NCBI RefSeq assembly: GCF_900114355.1
Contig: NZ_FOSS01000007.1
Span: forward strand, 34,316-87,211
Length of the DNA stretch: 52,896 nt
Source of the DNA: Lysobacter sp. cf310
Lineage (GTDB): Bacteria; Pseudomonadota; Gammaproteobacteria; Xanthomonadales; Xanthomonadaceae
Direction: 5' to 3'
A program made the position numbers and the translations under genes. Of the stretch, positions 21,762 to 35,298 are shown piece by piece. Below the pieces are notes generated by a model. The model did no database searches. It worked only from the letters and a program-made list of their open reading frames with translations, and was not told the DNA's origin. How positions within the stretch are numbered: position 1 is the stretch's first letter; each line of letters begins with the position of its first letter.

Positions 21762-22046
21762 GTCCATGGCGCCGCCTGCACAGACTTTGGATCGCCCGGC
21801 CCGGCCATTCATGGCTGGGCGCGTAGCCGGACTGCGCGCAATGCGCGAGACGCTTCTTGGGAGTGCTCCGCTGCCATCCATGGCGAGAAGACACGGACTT
21901 CGGATCGCCCGGCCCGGCCATCCATGGCCGGGCGCGTAGCCGGACTGCGCGCAATGCGCGAGACGCTTCTTGGGGGTGCCCCCTGCCATCCATGGCGAGA
22001 AGACGCGGACTTCGGATCGTCCGGCCCGGCCATCCATGGCCGGGCG
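21762..22046. repeat. three tandem ~112-bp repeats with internal palindromes
   Basis: The shared segment GGATCGCCCGGCCCGGCCAT starts near 21788, 21902 and 22014, about 112-113 bp apart. Each copy has a palindrome, CCCGGCCAT-CC-ATGGCCGGG in the second and third copies, and carries GCGCGTAGCC; copies are joined by GCGAGACGCTTCTTGGG. The first copy is the most diverged. The open frames it creates encode near-identical peptide repeats on both strands and are not convincing genes. Confidence 0.85.
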
Positions 22047-22047
22047 C

Positions 22048-22090
22048 GTAGCCGACGCGCGAGCCAATGGCTCGCAAGCGCGTCGGCTAC
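22048..22090 (-). terminator. long perfect hairpin at the 3' end of the lipid operon
   Basis: GTAGCCGACGCGC (22048-22060) pairs perfectly with GCGCGTCGGCTAC (22078-22090), with the inner stem GAGCC-AAT-GGCTC. The right arm contains the stop codon of the CdsA-like gene (22087-22089). There is no T tract, so it may be a 3'-end stabiliser or REP-type element rather than a true intrinsic terminator. Confidence 0.5.
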
Positions 22091-23058
22091 GCCCACCAAT
22101 ACCGGATCAAATGGAAGAACACCGGCGCCGCGAAACACACCGAATCCAAACGATCCAGCATGCCCCCGTGCCCCTCGATCATGTGTCCCCAATCCTTGAT
22201 CCCGCGATCGCGCTTGATCGCCGACATCACCAGACCACCGTAGAACCCCATCAGATTGATCACCAACGCCAACGCCGCCGCCTGCAACGGCGTGAACGGC
22301 GTGATCCACCACAAAGCCGCCCCTAGCGCCGTCGCCGAGGCCACCCCGCCGATGAAACCCTCCACCGTCTTGGACGGCGACAGCTTGGGCGCGATCAAGC
22401 GGCGCCCGCACAACTTGCCCCACACGTACTGCAACACGTCCGAGGACTGCACCACGATCACCAGGAACGCGATCAACAACAGATTGCGCCCCTCGTAGCC
22501 CGGAATGTCCAGATTCAACAACGCCGGCACGTGCGAAATGCAGAACACGCAGATCATCAGCCCCCACTGCACCTTGGCCGCGCGCTCCAGATAATGCGTG
22601 GTGTCGCCCCCCACCGTGGACAGGATCGGCAACAGCAGGAAGGCGTAGACCGGAATCAGCAGCGTGTACAACCCGTACCAGTCGGTGTAGACCAGCCAAT
22701 ACTGCAAGGGCAGCGCCGCGTAGAACGCCACCGCCAGCGCGTAGTAATCGCTGCGCCGCGTCGGCGTCAGGGTGATGAACTCGCGCAGCGCGAACAGCGA
22801 CACCAGCGCGAACAGCACGATCACCCCGACCCGGCCGATCAGGAACGACGCCCCCACCACCGCCGCCATCACCCACCAGGCGCGGATGCGCGCGGTCAGG
22901 TTGGCGATCACCGGGCTGGGCCGTCCGCGCGTGCGCCAGCGCAGGAATTCCGCGATCGCCGTGGCCAGCAACAGCACCCCCGCCACGCCCAGGAACAACA
23001 GCACCGAATGCGGCAGCACCTTCACCCGCTCGATCAGGATCGCGAGATTCGCGCTCAT
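22087..23058 (-). CDS. CdsA/YnbB-like phosphatidate cytidylyltransferase (CDP-diacylglycerol synthase)
   Basis: This 323-residue polytopic membrane protein has about eight hydrophobic helices. It carries the CDP-diacylglycerol synthase signature at residues 279-306 (SAIKRDRGIKDWG, then GHGGMLDRLDS), with the Asp and Lys residues that bind Mg2+ and CTP. The reaction is phosphatidate + CTP to CDP-diacylglycerol + PPi. SPSKTVEGFIGG is also conserved. Being last in a YnbABCD-like operon, it is more likely a YnbB-type paralogue dedicated to that pathway than the housekeeping cdsA, which usually lies near uppS and dxr. Its start overlaps the preceding acyltransferase stop (ATGA). Confidence 0.9.
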   Translation of the reverse strand: MSANLAILIERVKVLPHSVLLFLGVAGVLLLATAIAEFLRWRTRGRPSPVIANLTARIRAWWVMAAVVGASFLIGRVGVIVLFALVSLFALREFITLTPTRRSDYYALAVAFYAALPLQYWLVYTDWYGLYTLLIPVYAFLLLPILSTVGGDTTHYLERAAKVQWGLMICVFCISHVPALLNLDIPGYEGRNLLLIAFLVIVVQSSDVLQYVWGKLCGRRLIAPKLSPSKTVEGFIGGVASATALGAALWWITPFTPLQAAALALVINLMGFYGGLVMSAIKRDRGIKDWGHMIEGHGGMLDRLDSVCFAAPVFFHLIRYWWA

Positions 23059-23723
23059 GCGCCGCCCTCCGATCCGCGCGCGCCCGCACCGTCGCCGGAC
23101 AAGGCCAGCAGCGCCTCGCGCGCGCGCGCCAGGAACGCCGGCTTGTCCTCGTCGCTATGCAGCCGCAGCGGTTCGCCGAAGGTGGCCGTGCACAGCAGGG
23201 GCAGCGGCAGCAGCTTGCCCTTGGGCATCACCCGCGCCAGGTTGTCGATCCACACCGGTACGAACTCCAGCTCCGGACGCAGCCGGGCGAGATGGAACAG
23301 GCCGCTCTTGAAAGGCAGCAGGCCGTCGCCCTGGTTGCGCGTGCCTTCGGGAAACAGGATCAACGAAGCGCCGCCGTCGACCGCATCGCACAGGGTCTGC
23401 ATGGCCTCGTGGCGGCGCTGGTCGGGATCGCCGCAGTCCTGCGGCTTGGGCTCGCGGTCCACCAGCACGCCATTGAAGACTTCGCGTATCAGGTAACGGC
23501 GCAGTGCGTCGCGCTGCCAATAGTCGGCGCCCGCGACCGGCCGGGTCTCGTCGCGCACCGCGCGCGGCAGGGCCGACCAGATCATCACGAAGTCGCCGTG
23601 GCTGACGTGGTTGCCGTAATAGACCCGGCGATCGCCCAGCGGCGGGCAACGCCACAGCGCACGCGCACCGGTCAGGGCGCGGATCGCGAAACTGAAACCG
23701 TCGGCGATCCAACCGCTAAGCAT
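23055..23723 (-). CDS. PlsC-type 1-acyl-glycerol-3-phosphate acyltransferase
   Basis: This 222-residue protein shows the acyltransferase HX4D motif NHVSHGD (H39, D44) and the glycerol-phosphate-binding motif FPEGTR (124-129). A third conserved patch is LEFVPVWIDNL. The family transfers an acyl chain to a lysophospholipid or lysophosphatidate. A hydrophobic N-terminus suggests membrane association. It overlaps both neighbours (8 nt upstream, ATGA downstream), so its product probably makes or remodels the phosphatidate used by the adjacent CDP-diacylglycerol synthase. The substrate is not certain. Confidence 0.87.
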   Translation of the reverse strand: MLSGWIADGFSFAIRALTGARALWRCPPLGDRRVYYGNHVSHGDFVMIWSALPRAVRDETRPVAGADYWQRDALRRYLIREVFNGVLVDREPKPQDCGDPDQRRHEAMQTLCDAVDGGASLILFPEGTRNQGDGLLPFKSGLFHLARLRPELEFVPVWIDNLARVMPKGKLLPLPLLCTATFGEPLRLHSDEDKPAFLARAREALLALSGDGAGARGSEGGA

Positions 23724-24264
23724 CGATACGCACTCCCCCATAGGTCGACGGCACGCGCTCGTACCGCCATAGACTCGCGACCGGCGCGTCGTCGAACGCT
23801 TCCGGTCCCGCCTCATGATCCAGCGGCAGCGGCGCCAGCCACCAGGCCGTCGCCAACAACAAGGCCTGCGCGATCAGGCACGCGGCCTGACGCCGCAGCA
23901 GGCCGCGCGCGCCGCGCCAGCGCGCGGACCAGTCGCGGCCGGCGCGTTGGGGCGGCTGCAGGCCCAGGGCTTGCAGACTCGCGTCCACCGCCGTCGCCGC
24001 GTGCGCCGGATCGCGTTCGCGCGCGGCGGCCAGCAGCAGGCCGGCGTCGAAATCCACGCGCGCGGCGTAATAGACCTGCAGCAGGCCGGCGATCGCGCTC
24101 AGGCCCAGCCCGTAGGCGGTCCAGCCTACGAGCGCGCCGAAACCGAAGCCGGCCAGCAGCAGCCACAGGCCAGTCAAAGCCAGCAAGCCCAGCGACAACG
24201 CATGCAAGCGCCGCCCCTGGCGCAGCAGCAGGCCCATGGTGTGCAGCTCGAAAGCGGTGGTCAT
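23716..24264 (-). CDS. small multi-pass membrane protein of the lipid operon, unknown function
   Basis: This 182-residue protein has two adjacent membrane segments near the N-terminus (LSLGLLALTGLWLLLAGFGF and TAYGLGLSAIAGLLQVYYAA) and one near the C-terminus (ACLIAQALLLATAWWLAPLP). A soluble loop lies between them. No family is recognised. It overlaps the PAP2/phosphatase gene (ATGA) and the acyltransferase gene (8 nt), so it is an integral part of the operon. It is not one of the four genes of the E. coli ynbABCD set as I recall it. It could be a scaffold, a flippase partner or a subunit. Confidence 0.7.
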   Translation of the reverse strand: MTTAFELHTMGLLLRQGRRLHALSLGLLALTGLWLLLAGFGFGALVGWTAYGLGLSAIAGLLQVYYAARVDFDAGLLLAAARERDPAHAATAVDASLQALGLQPPQRAGRDWSARWRGARGLLRRQAACLIAQALLLATAWWLAPLPLDHEAGPEAFDDAPVASLWRYERVPSTYGGVRIDA

Positions 24265-25604
24265 GTCGCGGGCGCTCCCGACTGTACGGAGATCGGCATC
24301 GCACCGGCGCGGACCTGCTCCAGCGCACGCAGATGCGCTTCGCCCAGGACCACCGCCGGCCGTGCGGCGCGCACCTGCGCGACCGCAGTCTCGACGGTAT
24401 CGGCGCGGCCGCTGATCAGCAACCAGGCCGCGACCGTCGCCGCGCTGCGCGAATACCCCAGTGCGCAGCACACCAGCACCGCACCGGCCGCGCGCGCGGC
24501 TTCGATGTCCTGCGCGGCCGCGCGCAACGCCTGCGGTTCGGGTGCCACCAGGTCCAGCATCGGCCGCACCGCCGCCAGCCGCAGCGTCGACGGCGCCGAC
24601 AACTCGGCGCAGACATCGACCGCGGCCGCGTAGCGCGCAGCCTCGTCGCGACCGGGCATGCGGCCCAGCCAGACGCCGTCGGCGACTTCGACCGGCTGCG
24701 GCGCGCGCCGCGTCCACCACCGCGAATTGATCCATGCCGCCCACAGGTAGGGGGCATACAGCCAACGCGCGGCCGGACCGAGGCGGCCATCGGCGCGCTT
24801 CTGGAATCCGTCCGCGCCCAGCAGCGCATAGTTCAGCGCCACCAGCAGCAGCGACAGCGCCGGCCACAACAGCCACCACGCCGCGCCGCGCAGCATCCAG
24901 GCCAGCGCCGCGCACAAGGCCGCGCCGACCAGATACAGCGATGCCAGCCGCCAACGCTTAGGATCGCGCGCCCAAGCCGCCGCACGCCACGGCGAGCGCG
25001 CGCCTTCCGGCCACAGCCACACGCACAGCCAGCCCGCGAGCAGCCCGGTCGGCACGTCGACGAAATGGTGCTGATAGGTGGTCAGCACCGACACGCCGAT
25101 CAGGCCGAACCACAGGTGCAGCAGCCAGCGCCAGGCGCCGCTCAGGTGTTGGGCGAAACGCACCCACAGCACGATCAGCAGCACGATATGCAGCGACGGC
25201 GCCTGGTTGAACGGCTTGTCGAAACCCAGCAGCACGTCGAACATCCAGCCGAAGACGCCGTCGGTCTCGGGCCGTACGAAGCTGAAGGTCAGCGGGAACG
25301 CCAGGAAGCAGGCGATCGCGATGAACTGCGCGCTCAGCAGGCGCAGGGCCTGGTTGTCGAGTTCGCGGCGGTCGCGGCACACGAACAGCGAGATGCCGTA
25401 GAACAGATCGATCGACCAGTACGGCAGTATGGTCCAGGCCCAGAACGGGATCGCCCGCTCCCAGCCGAAGACGATGCTGGGCACGCCGACGCGCGCGGCC
25501 GCGACCGAATTCGCATAGCCGTAGCTGAGAAAGAACAACGGCCCCAGCAAGGCCAGCCACAGCAGCGCGCGGCCCCAGGGCCGGCGCACGGCGGTCTCGC
25601 TCAT
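24261..25604 (-). CDS. YnbD-like PAP2 phosphatase / dual-specificity phosphatase fusion
   Basis: This 447-residue protein joins two phosphatase types. The N-terminal ~200 residues are an integral PAP2_3 domain: PSLH with H139, and TYQHHFVDVPTG with H179 and D183, resembling inositol-phosphorylceramide-synthase-like lipid phosphotransferases. More membrane helices follow (about 225-265). The C-terminal ~150 residues form a dual-specificity phosphatase domain with the CX5R loop CALGYSR (C380, R386); the residue before the catalytic Cys is Cys, not the usual His. E. coli YnbD has the same fusion, as I recall. A likely role is dephosphorylating a phosphatidyl-alcohol-phosphate intermediate, as PTPMT1 does for PGP. 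ATGA overlaps couple it on both sides. Confidence 0.85.
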   Translation of the reverse strand: MSETAVRRPWGRALLWLALLGPLFFLSYGYANSVAAARVGVPSIVFGWERAIPFWAWTILPYWSIDLFYGISLFVCRDRRELDNQALRLLSAQFIAIACFLAFPLTFSFVRPETDGVFGWMFDVLLGFDKPFNQAPSLHIVLLIVLWVRFAQHLSGAWRWLLHLWFGLIGVSVLTTYQHHFVDVPTGLLAGWLCVWLWPEGARSPWRAAAWARDPKRWRLASLYLVGAALCAALAWMLRGAAWWLLWPALSLLLVALNYALLGADGFQKRADGRLGPAARWLYAPYLWAAWINSRWWTRRAPQPVEVADGVWLGRMPGRDEAARYAAAVDVCAELSAPSTLRLAAVRPMLDLVAPEPQALRAAAQDIEAARAAGAVLVCCALGYSRSAATVAAWLLISGRADTVETAVAQVRAARPAVVLGEAHLRALEQVRAGAMPISVQSGAPAT

Positions 25605-27343
25605 TCCTCGACCCGCTGCGCCAGCGACACGGTGAAGATGCCCCAGCGGTCGATGCGCTGATCGAGCTTGCGGAAACCGGCCGCGCGCACCAGCTCGTCC
25701 ATCTCGGCCTGCGAGCGCCGCCGCATCACCCAGGCCTCGCCGCCGCGGTGGCTGGTCAGGGCGCGCGCGATGAACTCCAACTGCGGGTGCCAGGGCTGAC
25801 CGGTGTAGACCAGATAGCCGCCCGGCGCGACCGCGTCGCCCAGGCCGGCCAGCGAGCGCCGCACCAGGGCGTTGTCGGGGAACAGTTCGTACAGGCCGGA
25901 CACGATCGCCAGGGTCGGGCGCGGCGCCAGCGCGGCCAGGGCGGCGCGGTCGAAGGCGTCGCCCTGCTCGAACTCGGCCACGCCGCCGGCGCCCAGCTCG
26001 GCGATCAGCGCGCGGCCCTGGCGCACGTTGAGATCGCTGTAGTCGCGCAGGCGGATCGAATCGGCGCCGCCGGCCAGGGCCTCCAGCGCGTAGCGGCCGT
26101 GACCGGCGGCGATATCGACCACGTCCACGCGCGCACCGGCCGCGCGCAGGCGGCGCATGGCCTCGCCCAGCAGTTCGTGCAGATGCGTGCGGCGTACGCG
26201 GATGCCGCGCCAGCCGATCGCGTCCAGATAGTTGCGATCGACCATGCGCCCCAGCGGACCGGCGCCGCGCGCCTGGTCGCGGTAGACGTAGTCCAGGCTG
26301 CTGCCGGAGTCGAAGCCGGTGTCCAGGCCGGTGCGGATGCCTTCGGACAGGTGGCCGCCGAAGCGCAGGCCGGCACGCACGAAGCGCCAACGCAGGTCCT
26401 GCAGCGAATTGCGTTCCGGCGGCCAGGCCAGGCGCTCGGCCTCCTCGAAACTGTCGCCGTGGCGATGCGCGTCCAGCAGCGAGGCATGCTGCAGCGGCTC
26501 GTCGAAGCGCGCGCGCAGGAAGTCGCGGATCTTGGCCAGCGCCGGCGCGCGCTCCTTCTCGCCCAAGGTGTCGTGATAGAAACCGGGCAGGAAGTGGCGC
26601 TGCTTGATGCTCGAGCCCAGGCGCTCGTAGAAGCGGTCCTGCGGCGCGCGGTGGACCACGAAATCCGAGCCCGAGACCAGCAGCTGCACCGGCACCCGGA
26701 TCGCCTGGGCGTCGGCGACGATGCGGTCGGCGGCCTCGTACAGGCCCAGCAGCACGCGCACCGAGATCGGCCGCGCGATCAGCGGATCGCTGCGGTAGCT
26801 GGCGACGCGCTCGCGGTCGTGGGTCAGCCATTGCGGCTGCACGTAACTGTTGACGAAGAAATTGCCGCGCAGCTTCTGCATCAGGCCCAGGCCCGCGCGT
26901 GCGAACGGCACGTACAGCTTGACCTTGAACGCAGGCGAGGCCAGCACCAGCGCGCGCAGGCGCGGCGCGTAGTCGTGGGCCCAGGTCGCAGCGACCACCG
27001 CGCCCACGCTCTGCGCGATCAACGCGGTGTCCTCCACCGCGATCCCGTGGACGTCGCCGATGTGGGCGACGAAGCGGTCCAGATCGCGCACCAGCGCCTC
27101 GAAGCCCGGCGCGTCGCCGCGCTCGCCCGGCGAGCGGCCGTTGCCGCGCGCGTCCCAGGCGAAGAAATCGCAATCGTCCAGACCCAGCTCGTCGACCAGG
27201 TGCGCGACCCGGCCGGAATGTTCGTGGCCGCGATGCAGCAGCACCACCGCGCGCCGCGGGCCCTCGCCGCGCGCCGGCCAATGACGGTAGTACAGCTCGG
27301 TGCCGTCGAAGCTGGCGTAGTGGCGTTCCTGGTGTTCCCTCAT
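25601..27343 (-). CDS. YnbC-like alpha/beta hydrolase - SAM methyltransferase fusion
   Basis: This 580-residue protein has an N-terminal serine hydrolase of the monoacylglycerol lipase/lysophospholipase type (VVLLHRGHEHSGR; FAWDARGNGRSPGERG). The nucleophile is S112 in AQSVG, with D227 in SGSDFVVH and H257 in GFYHD as the other triad members. From about residue 340 comes a class I methyltransferase domain with motif I VVDIAAGHGRY (408-418). The fusion matches E. coli YnbC and the annotation 'bifunctional alpha/beta hydrolase/SAM-dependent methyltransferase'. No signal peptide is seen, so it should act at the cytoplasmic face. It overlaps both neighbours by ATGA. The lipid substrate is unknown. 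Confidence 0.87.
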   Translation of the reverse strand: MREHQERHYASFDGTELYYRHWPARGEGPRRAVVLLHRGHEHSGRVAHLVDELGLDDCDFFAWDARGNGRSPGERGDAPGFEALVRDLDRFVAHIGDVHGIAVEDTALIAQSVGAVVAATWAHDYAPRLRALVLASPAFKVKLYVPFARAGLGLMQKLRGNFFVNSYVQPQWLTHDRERVASYRSDPLIARPISVRVLLGLYEAADRIVADAQAIRVPVQLLVSGSDFVVHRAPQDRFYERLGSSIKQRHFLPGFYHDTLGEKERAPALAKIRDFLRARFDEPLQHASLLDAHRHGDSFEEAERLAWPPERNSLQDLRWRFVRAGLRFGGHLSEGIRTGLDTGFDSGSSLDYVYRDQARGAGPLGRMVDRNYLDAIGWRGIRVRRTHLHELLGEAMRRLRAAGARVDVVDIAAGHGRYALEALAGGADSIRLRDYSDLNVRQGRALIAELGAGGVAEFEQGDAFDRAALAALAPRPTLAIVSGLYELFPDNALVRRSLAGLGDAVAPGGYLVYTGQPWHPQLEFIARALTSHRGGEAWVMRRRSQAEMDELVRAAGFRKLDQRIDRWGIFTVSLAQRVEE

Positions 27344-27984
27344 TCGCGACTCCCTTGCGTTGCGGCGTCGGCGGATGCCGCGCCGTGGCGCACGCCGGCG
27401 GTCACCCGCCGCAGCACCGTCCACACACACAACAATGCGGCCAGGATCGCGACCAGTTCGGTCGCGCGCGCGCCGGCCCAGCCCAGGGCCAGCGCCAGTC
27501 CCAGCGCGCCGACCACGAAGGCGCGGTCGCTCTTGCCCATGGGGCCGTCATAGCGGCGCGGCGCGCCGACCATCGGAGCGAGGATCCCGGCGAACTCAGT
27601 CAGCGCCGCCAGCCCCGCGAATGCCAGCAGGGTCCACGGCGCGACCCCAGGCACCGCCAACAAGGCCAGGTACAGCGCGCTGTCGGAGACCACGTCGCAG
27701 AGTTCGTTGAGGTAGGCGCCCAGGCGCGACTGCTGGCCGTGCTCGCGCGCCAGCATGCCGTCGATCGCGTTCAGGGCCATGCGCAGGAACATCCACAGCG
27801 GCAGGGCCGCGAACGCCCAGGGCTGCTCGGCGCCGTTCCAGGCCACCCAGGCCGCGACCGCCAGCGAGCCCAGCCCGGCCAGCACGGTGACCTGATTGGC
27901 GGTCACGCCGGCCGCAAACAGCGCGCGTACCAGCGGCCGCAACAAGGCCTGGAAGCGCCCCTTCAACGCATAGATCGATGCCAT
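27340..27984 (-). CDS. YnbA-like CDP-alcohol phosphatidyltransferase family protein
   Basis: This 214-residue multi-pass membrane protein has the CDP-alcohol phosphotransferase signature, in variant form. It reads N72-AI-D75-G76-ML-A79-R80, then G89-AYL-N93-ELC-D97. In the usual motif the positions of N72 and N93 are aspartates that bind metal; D75, G76, A79, R80, G89 and D97 are kept. I recall the same asparagines in E. coli YnbA. The family moves a phosphatidyl group from CDP-diacylglycerol to an alcohol. It is the first gene of the six-gene operon. The acceptor is unknown. Confidence 0.87.
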   Translation of the reverse strand: MASIYALKGRFQALLRPLVRALFAAGVTANQVTVLAGLGSLAVAAWVAWNGAEQPWAFAALPLWMFLRMALNAIDGMLAREHGQQSRLGAYLNELCDVVSDSALYLALLAVPGVAPWTLLAFAGLAALTEFAGILAPMVGAPRRYDGPMGKSDRAFVVGALGLALALGWAGARATELVAILAALLCVWTVLRRVTAGVRHGAASADAATQGSRE

Positions 27985-28201
27985 TCCCTGAGCCGGTCCC
28001 CATGCCCTCGCGGGCGATCGGGCATCAGCTTAGCCGCTGGCGCACGCGATGACGGCGCTGCCGCGGCTCGATCGCAGGGGTAGCGCATTGCTGACCCCCG
28101 GGGCCAGCGCGGCGCCACCTTCGGCTGCGCCGGACGCCCCGCGGGCGGGCGCACCGGCTGGATTCGGCGCGCGCAGGGCCGGGATGACGCGGCCGCACCG
28201 C

Positions 28202-28207
28202 TATAAT
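28202..28207 (+). promoter_or_regulatory. -10 element of the purH promoter
   Basis: A consensus TATAAT lies 31 nt before the purH ATG. No convincing -35 is present 16-18 bp upstream (GGGATGACG region). The 254-bp gap also holds the divergent start of the lipid operon and a dyad GCCCTCGCGGGCGATCGGGC near 28010-28030. Confidence 0.55.
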
Positions 28208-28238
28208 TCCCGCGCCCTTCCGCTGCCCGACTCCCCGC

Positions 28239-33126: not shown

Positions 33127-33414
33127 CGTGCCGGCGCCCCTAGCCTCGCTTGGTGATGCGTCCGTCGCCGTCGCCGGCAACCCGCTGTCGGGCGCTAGGT
33201 TAACGGCTGGCGCCGCACCGGCGTGGGCACGACCCGCAGGCCTCCAAGCGAAGCCGTCCTGATCCGGGGTTAGCCTGGCTGCATCGCCGGGCTAGTTTTC
33301 CGCTACCCCGCGCGAGCCGCTACACCCCGTCAGGGCGGTTTGCTAGGCTCCACCGGCGAATCCTTCGCGCGAGCCGCACATCGACGTGCGGACCTGACCG
33401 GACCCGCAGGCCGC

Positions 33415-35298
33415 ATGGCGCACAACCAGCTCGAGCTGCTCAAGCAGCGACGTTTCCTGCCGTTCTTCCTGACCCAGGCATTCGGTGCGTTCAACGACAA
33501 CGTCTATCGCCAGGCCATCATCGGCCTGCTGTTCTATCTGGGGGTCAGCGACGAGCAGCGCACCCTCTACACCAACCTGGCGCCGGCGCTGTTCATCCTG
33601 CCCTACTTCCTGTTCTCGGCCACCGCCGGCCAGATCGCCGAGAAGCTGGAGAAGCACAAGCTGATCCGGATCACGACCGCGATGGAAATCGCGATCATGT
33701 CGCTGGCCGCGGTCGGCTTCCTGACCCAGAGCCTGCCGGTGCTGCTGGTCGCGCTGTTCGGCACCGGCCTGCAATCGACCCTGTTCGGGCCGGTCAAGTA
33801 TTCGATCCTGCCCTCGGTGCTCAAGCCCGAGGAGCTCACCGGCGGCAACGGCCTGGTCGAGATGGGCACCTCGATCTCGATCCTGGCCGGCATGATCTTC
33901 GGCGGCCTGATCTTCACTCTCGCCGGCACCCACGGGCCGGTGGTCGCGGCCACCGCGATCGTGCTGCTGGCGATCACCGGCAACCTCGTCAGCCGCATGA
34001 TCCCGCGCGCCGACGCCGGCGAACCGGACCTGGCGATCAATTGGAACCCCGTCCCCGAGTCGGTGAAGATCATGCGCATGACCCGGCGCCAGCCGGCGGT
34101 GCGCAACGCGGTGCTGGGCGTGTCGTGGTTCTGGTTCGTGGGCACCGTGCTGACCTCGCAGCTGCCGGGCTATGCGGAGGACAACCTCGGCGGCGGGCCC
34201 ACGCTGTACATCTTCGCGCTGGCGCTGTTCTCGATCGGCACCGGCGTGGGCTCGATGCTGTGCGAACGGCTGTCGGCGCGCACGGTCGAGATCGGCCTGG
34301 TGCCGCTGGGCGCGTTCGGCATGACCGCCTTCATGGTCGATCTGTATTTCGCCCGCACCGGCGCGGCCACCGTCGCCGGCCTGGACGTGGCCGGCTTCGT
34401 CGGCCAGCCCGGCGCCTGGCGGGTGATGGTGGACCTGGTCGGCATCGGCGTGTTCGCCGGCTTCTTCGTGGTGCCGCTGTTCGCGCTGATCCAGAGCCGC
34501 TCGCCCAAGAACGAGCTGTCGCGCGTGATCGCCGGCATGAACATCCAGAACGCCGCCTTCATCGTGTCGGCGGCGGTGCTGGGCGTGGTCGTACAGCGCT
34601 ACTTGCACTGGACCATTCCGCAGGTGTTCCTGGGCCTGGCCGTGGCCAACGCCCTGGTCGCGATCTGGATCTTCACCCTGGTGCCCGAGTTCCTGATGCG
34701 CTTCATGAGCTGGGTGCTCGTGCGCGCGCTCTACCGGCTGCGCGTGCAGGGCGTCGAGCGGATCCCCGACGAGGGCGCGGCGCTGGTGGTGTGCAACCAC
34801 GTCAGCTACATGGACGCCCTGATCCTGAGCGCCAGCATTCCGCGCCCGGTGCGTTTCGTCATGTACTACAAGATCTTCAACATTCCGGTGATGAGCTGGA
34901 TCTTCCGCACCGCCAAGGCGATTCCGATCGCCGGCGCGCGCGAGAACCCGGAGATCATGCGGCGCGCGTTCGAGGAGATCGAGGCCGCGCTCGCCGACGG
35001 CCAGATCGTCGGCATCTTCCCCGAGGGCGCCCTGACCAAGGACGGCGAGATCGCCAAGTTCAAGTCCGGCGTCGAGCACATCCTGGAAAAGCAGCCGGTG
35101 CCGGTGATCCCGATGGCGCTGCGCGGCATGTGGACCAGCATGTGGAGCCATCGCGACTCGCGCATGGCGCGCATGCGCGTGCCGCGGCGTTTCCGCGCCC
35201 AGGTCGAGGTGGTCGCCGCCGCGCCGGTGGACGGCGCCGCGGCCAGCGCCGAAAGCCTGGAAGCGCAGGTGCGCGCGTTGCGCGGCGACGCCGCGTGA
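33415..35298 (+). CDS. MFS (LplT-like) lysophospholipid transporter - PlsC acyltransferase fusion
   Basis: This 627-residue protein has an N-terminal 12-helix MFS domain resembling LplT (FLTQAFGAFNDNVYRQAIIG; GPVKYSILPSVLKPEELTGG; RVIAGMNIQNAAF). A glycerolipid acyltransferase domain follows from about 435, with NHVSYMD (H462, D467) and FPEGA (535-539, where the family usually has FPEGTR). It resembles the Aas/LplT system that imports and re-acylates lysophospholipids, but without the AMP-binding acyl-ACP synthetase domain, so it must take acyl groups from ACP or CoA made elsewhere. The ATG at 33415 begins just before the first helix. Confidence 0.88.
   Translation: MAHNQLELLKQRRFLPFFLTQAFGAFNDNVYRQAIIGLLFYLGVSDEQRTLYTNLAPALFILPYFLFSATAGQIAEKLEKHKLIRITTAMEIAIMSLAAVGFLTQSLPVLLVALFGTGLQSTLFGPVKYSILPSVLKPEELTGGNGLVEMGTSISILAGMIFGGLIFTLAGTHGPVVAATAIVLLAITGNLVSRMIPRADAGEPDLAINWNPVPESVKIMRMTRRQPAVRNAVLGVSWFWFVGTVLTSQLPGYAEDNLGGGPTLYIFALALFSIGTGVGSMLCERLSARTVEIGLVPLGAFGMTAFMVDLYFARTGAATVAGLDVAGFVGQPGAWRVMVDLVGIGVFAGFFVVPLFALIQSRSPKNELSRVIAGMNIQNAAFIVSAAVLGVVVQRYLHWTIPQVFLGLAVANALVAIWIFTLVPEFLMRFMSWVLVRALYRLRVQGVERIPDEGAALVVCNHVSYMDALILSASIPRPVRFVMYYKIFNIPVMSWIFRTAKAIPIAGARENPEIMRRAFEEIEAALADGQIVGIFPEGALTKDGEIAKFKSGVEHILEKQPVPVIPMALRGMWTSMWSHRDSRMARMRVPRRFRAQVEVVAAAPVDGAAASAESLEAQVRALRGDAA

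What the first reader, a model, noticed from the sequence alone, without database searches (positions are those of the whole stretch)
22087..27984. A six-gene, overlap-coupled YnbABCD-like lipid operon between fis and purH
Seen: six minus-strand genes with four ATGA overlaps and one 8-bp overlap. They encode a CDP-alcohol phosphotransferase, a hydrolase-methyltransferase fusion, a PAP2-dual-specificity phosphatase fusion, a small membrane protein, a PlsC acyltransferase and a CdsA-like synthase. Known: CdsA makes CDP-diacylglycerol, CDP-alcohol transferases add a head group, and PTPMT1-type phosphatases trim phosphatidyl-alcohol phosphates; E. coli ynbABCD has four of these activities and no established product. 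Inference: this is a complete cytoplasmic-to-membrane route to an unidentified phospholipid, with acyl supply and head-group methylation or hydrolysis included.
Basis: partly seen in the sequence, partly recalled or inferred. Interest (0 to 1): 0.8.

Follow-up and report, generated by a model that had tools for sequence, protein, structure and literature searches.

The report
Conserved operon for an unidentified phospholipid
Six tightly joined bacterial genes, also present in reduced form in E. coli, look like a kit for building a membrane lipid that has not been identified, and its probable key enzyme has an unusual active site.

Summary
Their order A-C-D-E-F-B (CDP-alcohol transferase, hydrolase-methyltransferase, PAP2-DSP, small membrane protein, PlsC, YnbB-type CDP-DAG synthase) recurs in 120 of 127 loci. 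The interpretation needs changing. In 398 Pseudomonadota genomes the hallmark gene C (27 genomes) is never without B (68 genomes; nominal p 1e-23), but B and its PlsC partner also occur without C, D and E, with the same transferase (8 of 45 regions) or a second type (19 of 45). So acyl supply, CDP-DAG and head-group transfer form the core; methyltransferase, hydrolase and phosphatase are additions. The transferase breaks its family's signature: two metal-binding Asp are Asn in 127 of 127 loci. Published work ties E. coli YnbB to the glycolipid MPIase, which distribution and gene content do not support as the general role. Most likely the operon makes a phospholipid from a phosphorylated polyol, then dephosphorylates and methylates it. 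The head group is unknown; no reaction was shown here.

The parts
27340..27984 (-). A: YnbA-type CDP-alcohol phosphotransferase relative, 214 aa, first gene
   Evidence: PF01066 35.7 bits over cut-off 22; nearest NCBIfam models archaetidylinositol-phosphate synthase 74.4 bits and PIP synthase 51.3 bits, both far under their cut-offs
27694..27771 (-). altered signature of A: N72-x2-D75-G-x2-AR-x8-G-x3-N93-x3-D97
   Evidence: read; Asn at D1 and D3 in 127 of 127 loci, 120 distinct A proteins; the other three CDP-alcohol transferases found in this genome have Asp at both
25601..27343 (-). C: alpha/beta hydrolase fused to PF12147 methyltransferase, 580 aa
   Evidence: PF12147 496 bits, PF12146 234 bits; presumed triad Ser112/Asp227/His257 invariant in 14 aligned sequences
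25604..26491 (-). methyltransferase part of C
24261..25604 (-). D: PAP2-like membrane domain fused to dual-specificity-phosphatase domain, 447 aa
   Evidence: DSPc 35.9 bits over cut-off 33.5; PAP2_3 25.5 bits just under 27; CxxGxxRS in 124 of 125 loci with D, the miss being cut at a contig end
23716..24264 (-). E: small protein with predicted long helices, presumed membrane protein, 182 aa, no known family
   Evidence: two Pfam hits at E 0.07 only, among 19 relatives; helical AlphaFold2 model pLDDT 83.8, no PDB match at E<=0.001
23055..23723 (-). F: PlsC-type lysophosphatidate acyltransferase, 222 aa
   Evidence: PF01553 61.5 bits; HX4D in 121 of 122 (the miss has masked letters there) and FPEG in 122 of 122 loci with F; PDB acyltransferase 5kym E 3e-9
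22087..23058 (-). B: YnbB-type CDP-diacylglycerol synthase, 323 aa, last gene
   Evidence: PF01148 233 bits; SAIKRx..KDWG..HGG.DR.DS motif in 122 of 122 loci with B; PDB phosphatidate cytidylyltransferase 4q2g E 2e-22
27985..28238 (.). 254-base divergent intergenic region between A and purH, presumed promoter region
   Evidence: coordinates; no sigma-70-like site and no Rfam match, so the promoter is not located

Best explanation
This is a co-translated operon of the ynb type that builds a specialised, probably minor, phospholipid from a dedicated CDP-diacylglycerol supply. F (PlsC) acylates lysophosphatidate to phosphatidate; B (YnbB-type synthase) turns it with CTP into CDP-diacylglycerol; A, a CDP-alcohol transferase with an Asn-for-Asp metal site, moves the phosphatidyl group onto a phosphorylated polyol or sugar; the phosphatase domain(s) of D remove the terminal phosphate; the methyltransferase of C methylates the head group; the hydrolase of C trims or remodels acyl chains; E is a membrane accessory. 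F, B and A are the core; C, D and E are an added layer. Shown by sequence: the genes, their order, conservation, linkage, intact catalytic motifs and the altered signature. Inferred: every reaction, their order and the phosphorylated acceptor. Unknown: the head group.
For: C occurs with B in 27 of 27 genomes against 68 of 398 overall. A-type transferase (E<=1e-45) occurs with B in 35 of 37 genomes; of the two misses, G110 has broken remnants of A and B side by side. PlsC lies beside B in 44 of 45 further B regions, and A with F and B but without C, D, E in 8 of them. A's closest named models are archaetidylinositol-phosphate and PIP synthases, whose acceptors are phosphorylated; GKSDR and T-x3-R are invariant in A and lie about where MtPIPS has R155 and R195, implicated in binding the acceptor phosphate by mutagenesis (PMC4634129, passages; alignment, one residue out of register at R155). 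D's phosphatase domain matches dual-specificity phosphatases, PTPMT1 among them. The hydrolase of C matches monoacylglycerol lipases. E. coli YnbB can make CDP-DAG (PMC7018664, passages).
Confidence: 0.55

Rival explanations
1. The locus serves MPIase-type glycolipid synthesis: YnbB makes CDP-DAG and GlcNAc-PP-DAG, and the other genes assist or remodel that glycolipid.
For: YnbB overproduction raises MPIase in E. coli, YnbB could not replace CdsA for bulk phospholipid, and the effect of losing ynbB was stronger when Tam41p was expressed (PMC6362211, passages; PMC7018664, passages). cdsA and ynbB are raised in the cold together with MPIase (PMC10881803, passages).
Against: Deleting ynbB alone did not significantly change MPIase. 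The window genome has no match to PF07429, the Fuc4NAc transferase family of the ECA-type glycan (its role in that glycan is recalled); in 398 genomes only 3 of 68 YnbB-type genomes have it, and 23 of 26 genomes that have it have no YnbB-type match at E<=1e-60. A CDP-alcohol transferase, methyltransferase and phosphatase have no place in that scheme. MPIase glycans outside enterobacteria could differ.
Confidence: 0.12
2. A is a second phosphatidylglycerophosphate synthase, so that the operon makes extra or remodelled phosphatidylglycerol under stress.
For: Same fold family; D could supply PGP phosphatase; PTPMT1 is among D's matches.
Against: The genome has a canonical PgsA (TIGR00560 161 bits over cut-off 109) with an intact signature; A scores only 20.4 bits for TIGR00560 against 74.4 for archaetidylinositol-phosphate synthase; E. 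coli YnbD did not act as PGP phosphatase in complementation; a methyltransferase is unexplained.
Confidence: 0.13
3. A works in the Kennedy direction, joining diacylglycerol or another lipid alcohol to a soluble CDP-polyol, and B, F and the PAP2 domain supply or recycle the lipid part.
For: A divergent A relative without B (G287, L318) lies beside a glycerol-3-phosphate/heptose-type nucleotidyltransferase. PAP2 enzymes can make diacylglycerol (recalled).
Against: That relative has only half of the change (Ala at D1, Asn at D3); A-type transferases occur in genomes with a YnbB-type CDP-DAG synthase in 35 of 37 cases.
Confidence: 0.08
4. A is no longer an enzyme; B and F feed ordinary CDP-DAG into the general pool, and C and D degrade or salvage membrane lipids.
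For: Two of four signature Asp are Asn in all 127 loci.
Against: The Asn, D75, D97 and the GKSDR and T-x3-R residues are all invariant in ten sequences from Proteobacteria, a Fusobacterium and a cyanobacterium, which a dead domain would not be expected to keep.
Confidence: 0.07

Closest known systems
Escherichia coli ynbABCD
   Same: Orthologues of A, B, C and D (HMM scores 235, 240, 922 and 446 bits), same Asn signature in YnbA; the four-gene stretch is held at 80% cover or more in 4242 of 5426 E. coli genomes
   Different: Order A-B-C-D and no PlsC or E gene there; the window has A-C-D-E-F-B. A Citrobacter plasmid keeps A-B-F-C-D and a small gene
Phosphatidylinositol-phosphate synthases (M. 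tuberculosis PgsA1, R. salmoninarum PIPS) and archaetidylinositol-phosphate synthase
   Same: Best PDB and NCBIfam matches to A; likely phosphate-binding residues kept
   Different: D1 and D3 of the signature are Asn in A; scores far below equivalog cut-offs; no myo-inositol-phosphate synthase family member in the genome
CdsA CDP-DAG synthase
   Same: C-terminal catalytic motif intact; PF01148
   Different: A second PF01148 locus exists in this genome, presumably the housekeeping cdsA; PRK11624 score 92 against cut-off 385
PTPMT1 and other dual-specificity phosphatases
   Same: CxxGxxRS loop in D and profile matches
   Different: Fused to a PAP2-like membrane domain; substrate unknown
Parabacteroides four-gene lipid cluster that aids growth in bile acids (PMC11300592, one passage)
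   Same: Also a CDP-alcohol transferase with a lysophospholipid acyltransferase, product unknown
   Different: Its other two genes are a nucleotidyltransferase and a dehydrogenase/reductase; no CDP-DAG synthase, methyltransferase or phosphatase is named

Membership tests
ynb-type operon (as in E. coli ynbABCD) | orthologues of YnbA, YnbB, YnbC, YnbD in one cluster | tested here: met
   HMMs built from the window family hit all four E. coli proteins
ynb-type operon (as in E. coli ynbABCD) | E. coli gene order A-B-C-D without PlsC | tested here: not met
   window order A-C-D-E-F-B; the six-gene form is the common one in the loci read
class I CDP-alcohol phosphotransferase | Pfam PF01066 over gathering score | tested here: met
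   35.7 bits against 22
class I CDP-alcohol phosphotransferase | signature D1xxD2G1xxAR...G2xxxD3xxxD4, called absolutely conserved in PMC4634129 | tested here: not met
   N at D1 and D3 in 127 of 127 loci; so A is a relative with a changed signature, activity unproven
PIP synthase / archaetidylinositol-phosphate synthase | NCBIfam equivalog cut-off | tested here: not met
   51.3 against 170 and 74.4 against 180 bits
PIP synthase / archaetidylinositol-phosphate synthase | supply of inositol phosphate | tested here: inconclusive
   no PF01658 match in the genome; import or other routes not tested
CDP-DAG synthase (CdsA superfamily) | PF01148 and catalytic motif | tested here: met
   233 bits; motif in 122 of 122 loci with B
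PlsC acyltransferase | HX4D and FPEG motifs | tested here: met
   121 of 122 (miss masked) and 122 of 122
cysteine-dependent dual-specificity phosphatase | CX5R loop, DSPc over cut-off | tested here: met
   35.9 against 33.5 bits; CxxGxxRS 124 of 125
PTPMT1 (PGP phosphatase) | PGP phosphatase activity | not testable with these tools
   sequence match only; E. coli YnbD negative in complementation in PMC7413402
PAP2 phosphatase | Pfam PAP2 or PAP2_3 over cut-off | tested here: inconclusive
   window 25.5 against 27 bits; PAP2_3 at E<=0.01 in 12 of 14 members; TT.QHH..D.PTG in 117 of 125
PF12147 methyltransferase | PF12147 over cut-off with SAM motif | tested here: met
   496 against 21 bits; D[IV]A[AS]GHG in 127 of 127
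MPIase pathway (ECA-type glycan) | co-occurrence with Fuc4NAc transferase PF07429 | tested here: not met
   3 of 68 YnbB-type genomes; no match in own genome
operon | single transcript | not testable with these tools
   only overlaps and conserved order

The most novel reading that the evidence does not exclude
A and its second type A2 form an unrecognised class of CDP-alcohol transferase with an N-D-N-D metal site, as a rule served by its own CDP-DAG supply (YnbB + PlsC), and in the full operon the methyltransferase caps a phosphatidyl-polyol phosphate or its head group, giving a methylated bacterial phospholipid comparable to the methyl-capped phosphatidylglycerophosphate of haloarchaea (that comparison is recalled).
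Probability: 0.12. Interest if true: 0.85.

Novelty: new variant of a known kind. Interest (0 to 1): 0.6.

Why it matters
The four-gene form lies in 4242 of 5426 complete E. coli genomes, the fuller form in many Pseudomonas, Xanthomonas, Stenotrophomonas and Lysobacter species, and smaller sets in single Fusobacterium and cyanobacterial records, yet its product is unknown. If the reading is right, common laboratory bacteria can make a phospholipid that has been overlooked, through an enzyme class whose metal site departs from the textbook signature. The modular picture says which genes to test first (A with B and F) and gives a clear contrast with the published MPIase assignment of YnbB.

Tried and rejected
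Head-group clue from own genome: no myo-inositol-phosphate synthase family member, so plain phosphatidylinositol synthesis was set aside. Head-group clue from neighbours in plasmid records (two of these records carry no gene table for the stretch): contexts vary and show no shared precursor gene. A2 in plasmids: only two partial matches. Structure of the methyltransferase part: fold confirmed, substrate not indicated. Structure of E: no match; the VIA second look was not run for it. PAP2 part against the PDB by profile: only weak matches to phospholipid phosphatases 1 and 2, best E 0.003. Phages: no relative of C at E<=1e-20. Promoter and Rfam scans gave nothing usable. My first motif search for the second CDP-alcohol transferase was too strict and found none in 25 loci; a phmmer search then found it in 25 of 25. 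My first HMM round was contaminated by wrong-frame ORFs and was rebuilt with one best ORF per locus. In ten loci the E hit began in a longer frame that overlaps D, which makes E and D appear swapped; I count them as the normal order. Paper searches for the operon and for the altered signature listed no paper that I recognised as describing its product or the Asn signature; I looked only at listings and passages, the library lacks most subscription journals, and Sato et al. 2019 on YnbB was seen only as a reference-list entry.
Full report
OBSERVATION.

CONSERVATION. In 398 evenly drawn Pseudomonadota genomes C occurs in 27, the window's included. With 20 of 40 other near relatives and 80 named contigs, the cap of a search that had more, 127 loci were read; the order A-C-D-E-F-B, inserts allowed, is in 120, and all six are detected in 121. 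The sample is uneven (Pseudomonas and Lysobacteraceae dominate) and holds 122 distinct C proteins. Exceptions are informative: in L074 and L083, and in Shinella, A is divergent from C; in L077 and a Burkholderia ambifaria plasmid, F and B are divergent from A-C-D-E. Thirty plasmid records hold a relative of C, 29 over at least 80% of its length; several are chromosome-sized.

CORE AND ADDITIONS. YnbB-type B (E<=1e-60) occurs in 68 of the 398 genomes and in all 27 that have C (p 1.2e-23, nominal because genomes are related). Outside the C loci, 45 B regions were read: PlsC lies beside B in 44; an A-type transferase without C, D or E in 8; a second type, A2, in 19; one partial A2; none recognised in 17. 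A-type transferases (E<=1e-45) occur in 37 genomes, 35 of them with B; the two others are G110, with broken remnants of A and B together, and G287, a divergent relative beside a nucleotidyltransferase. A2 was found in 12 of 299 genomes at E<=1e-10, each with F and B nearby; but in G397 an A2-type gene has no F or B within 13 kb while the genome's F-B pair lies elsewhere. A2 also sits inside the full operon, between E and F, in 25 of 127 loci, all Lysobacter or Xanthomonas where named, in L088 next to a TIGR04222 membrane protein. In a Fusobacterium record the set is C-A-B, and in a Pseudanabaena plasmid A-B-F plus a methyltransferase without hydrolase or D, within the stretches read. E. coli has A-B-C-D. 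So acyl supply, CDP-DAG and transfer are the core, and C, D and E are additions that are usual in the Proteobacteria that have C.

THE ALTERED TRANSFERASE. PMC4634129 (passages) calls the eight signature residues absolutely conserved, with D1-D3 binding metal and D4 as likely base; PMC6506517 (passages) shows two magnesium ions held by D1, D2, D3 and by D3, D4. In A, D1 and D3 are Asn in 127 of 127 loci, in E. coli, Fusobacterium, Moraxella and Pseudanabaena copies too, and in all 19 full A2 genes; some Lysobacter A2 genes have Ser at D3, and the divergent G287 relative has Ala at D1 and Asn at D3. The other three transferases of this genome, one PgsA and two PssA-like, are normal. Residues near those of the phosphate-binding Arg pair of MtPIPS are kept, with the caution that the R155 match is one residue out of register in the printed alignment.

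MECHANISM. Best reading (confidence 0.55): F, B and A make a phosphatidyl-polyol phosphate; D dephosphorylates it; C methylates and trims it; E assists. Only genes, motifs, order and linkage are shown; the reactions are inferred and the head group is unknown. No myo-inositol-phosphate synthase family member was found.

KNOWN WORK. YnbB raises MPIase when overproduced, can make CDP-DAG, and cannot replace CdsA; its deletion alone did not significantly change MPIase (PMC6362211, PMC7018664, passages). YnbD failed to complement phosphatase mutants (PMC7413402, passages). ynbD is listed among candidate fitness genes in a uropathogenic E. coli screen (PMC3855560, one passage), and ynbC with a substitution and raised expression in a persister study (PMC13313352, passages). 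PF07429, a marker of the ECA-type glycan, is in 3 of 68 YnbB-type genomes and not found here, so MPIase is unlikely to be the general role. No paper listed was seen to give the operon a product.

VERDICT. A real, conserved, uncharacterised lipid operon; a six-gene member of the ynb type with a changed transferase signature. New variant of a known kind; interest 0.6.

Noticed in passing
L088:11348-13577 and 24 other loci: Two extra genes between E and F in Lysobacter and Xanthomonas: a second CDP-alcohol transferase (A2, in 25 of 25 such loci) and, in L088 where it was tested, a TIGR04222 membrane protein.
   Followed up: partly
L207-L218, L256, L269-L271, L273, L274, L276: A2 + PlsC + YnbB-type synthase occur together without C, D, E in other Proteobacteria.
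   Followed up: partly
L318:6243-7564: Divergent A relative (Ala at D1, Asn at D3) beside a glycerol-3-phosphate/heptose-type nucleotidyltransferase.
   Followed up: no
window 21779-22061: 113-bp tandem repeat, 2.5 copies, 93% matches, directly downstream of B.
   Followed up: no
window 33340-35298: Another lipid gene nearby: a protein that looks transporter-like by eye with a C-terminal PlsC-type acyltransferase domain.
   Followed up: no
L192:3895-9620: Kosakonia cowanii plasmid-borne C relative (38% identity) in a cluster annotated with ketoacyl synthase, FabG, MaoC and phosphopantetheine-binding genes, a different setting for this family.
   Followed up: no
L191:7272-15248: Moraxella osloensis plasmid with A, a C relative interrupted by a stop, a patatin-like phospholipase, an SDR, a CdsA relative and a PAP2 protein.
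   Followed up: no
L076:10208-12361: 717-aa protein of unknown kind inserted between C and D.
   Followed up: no
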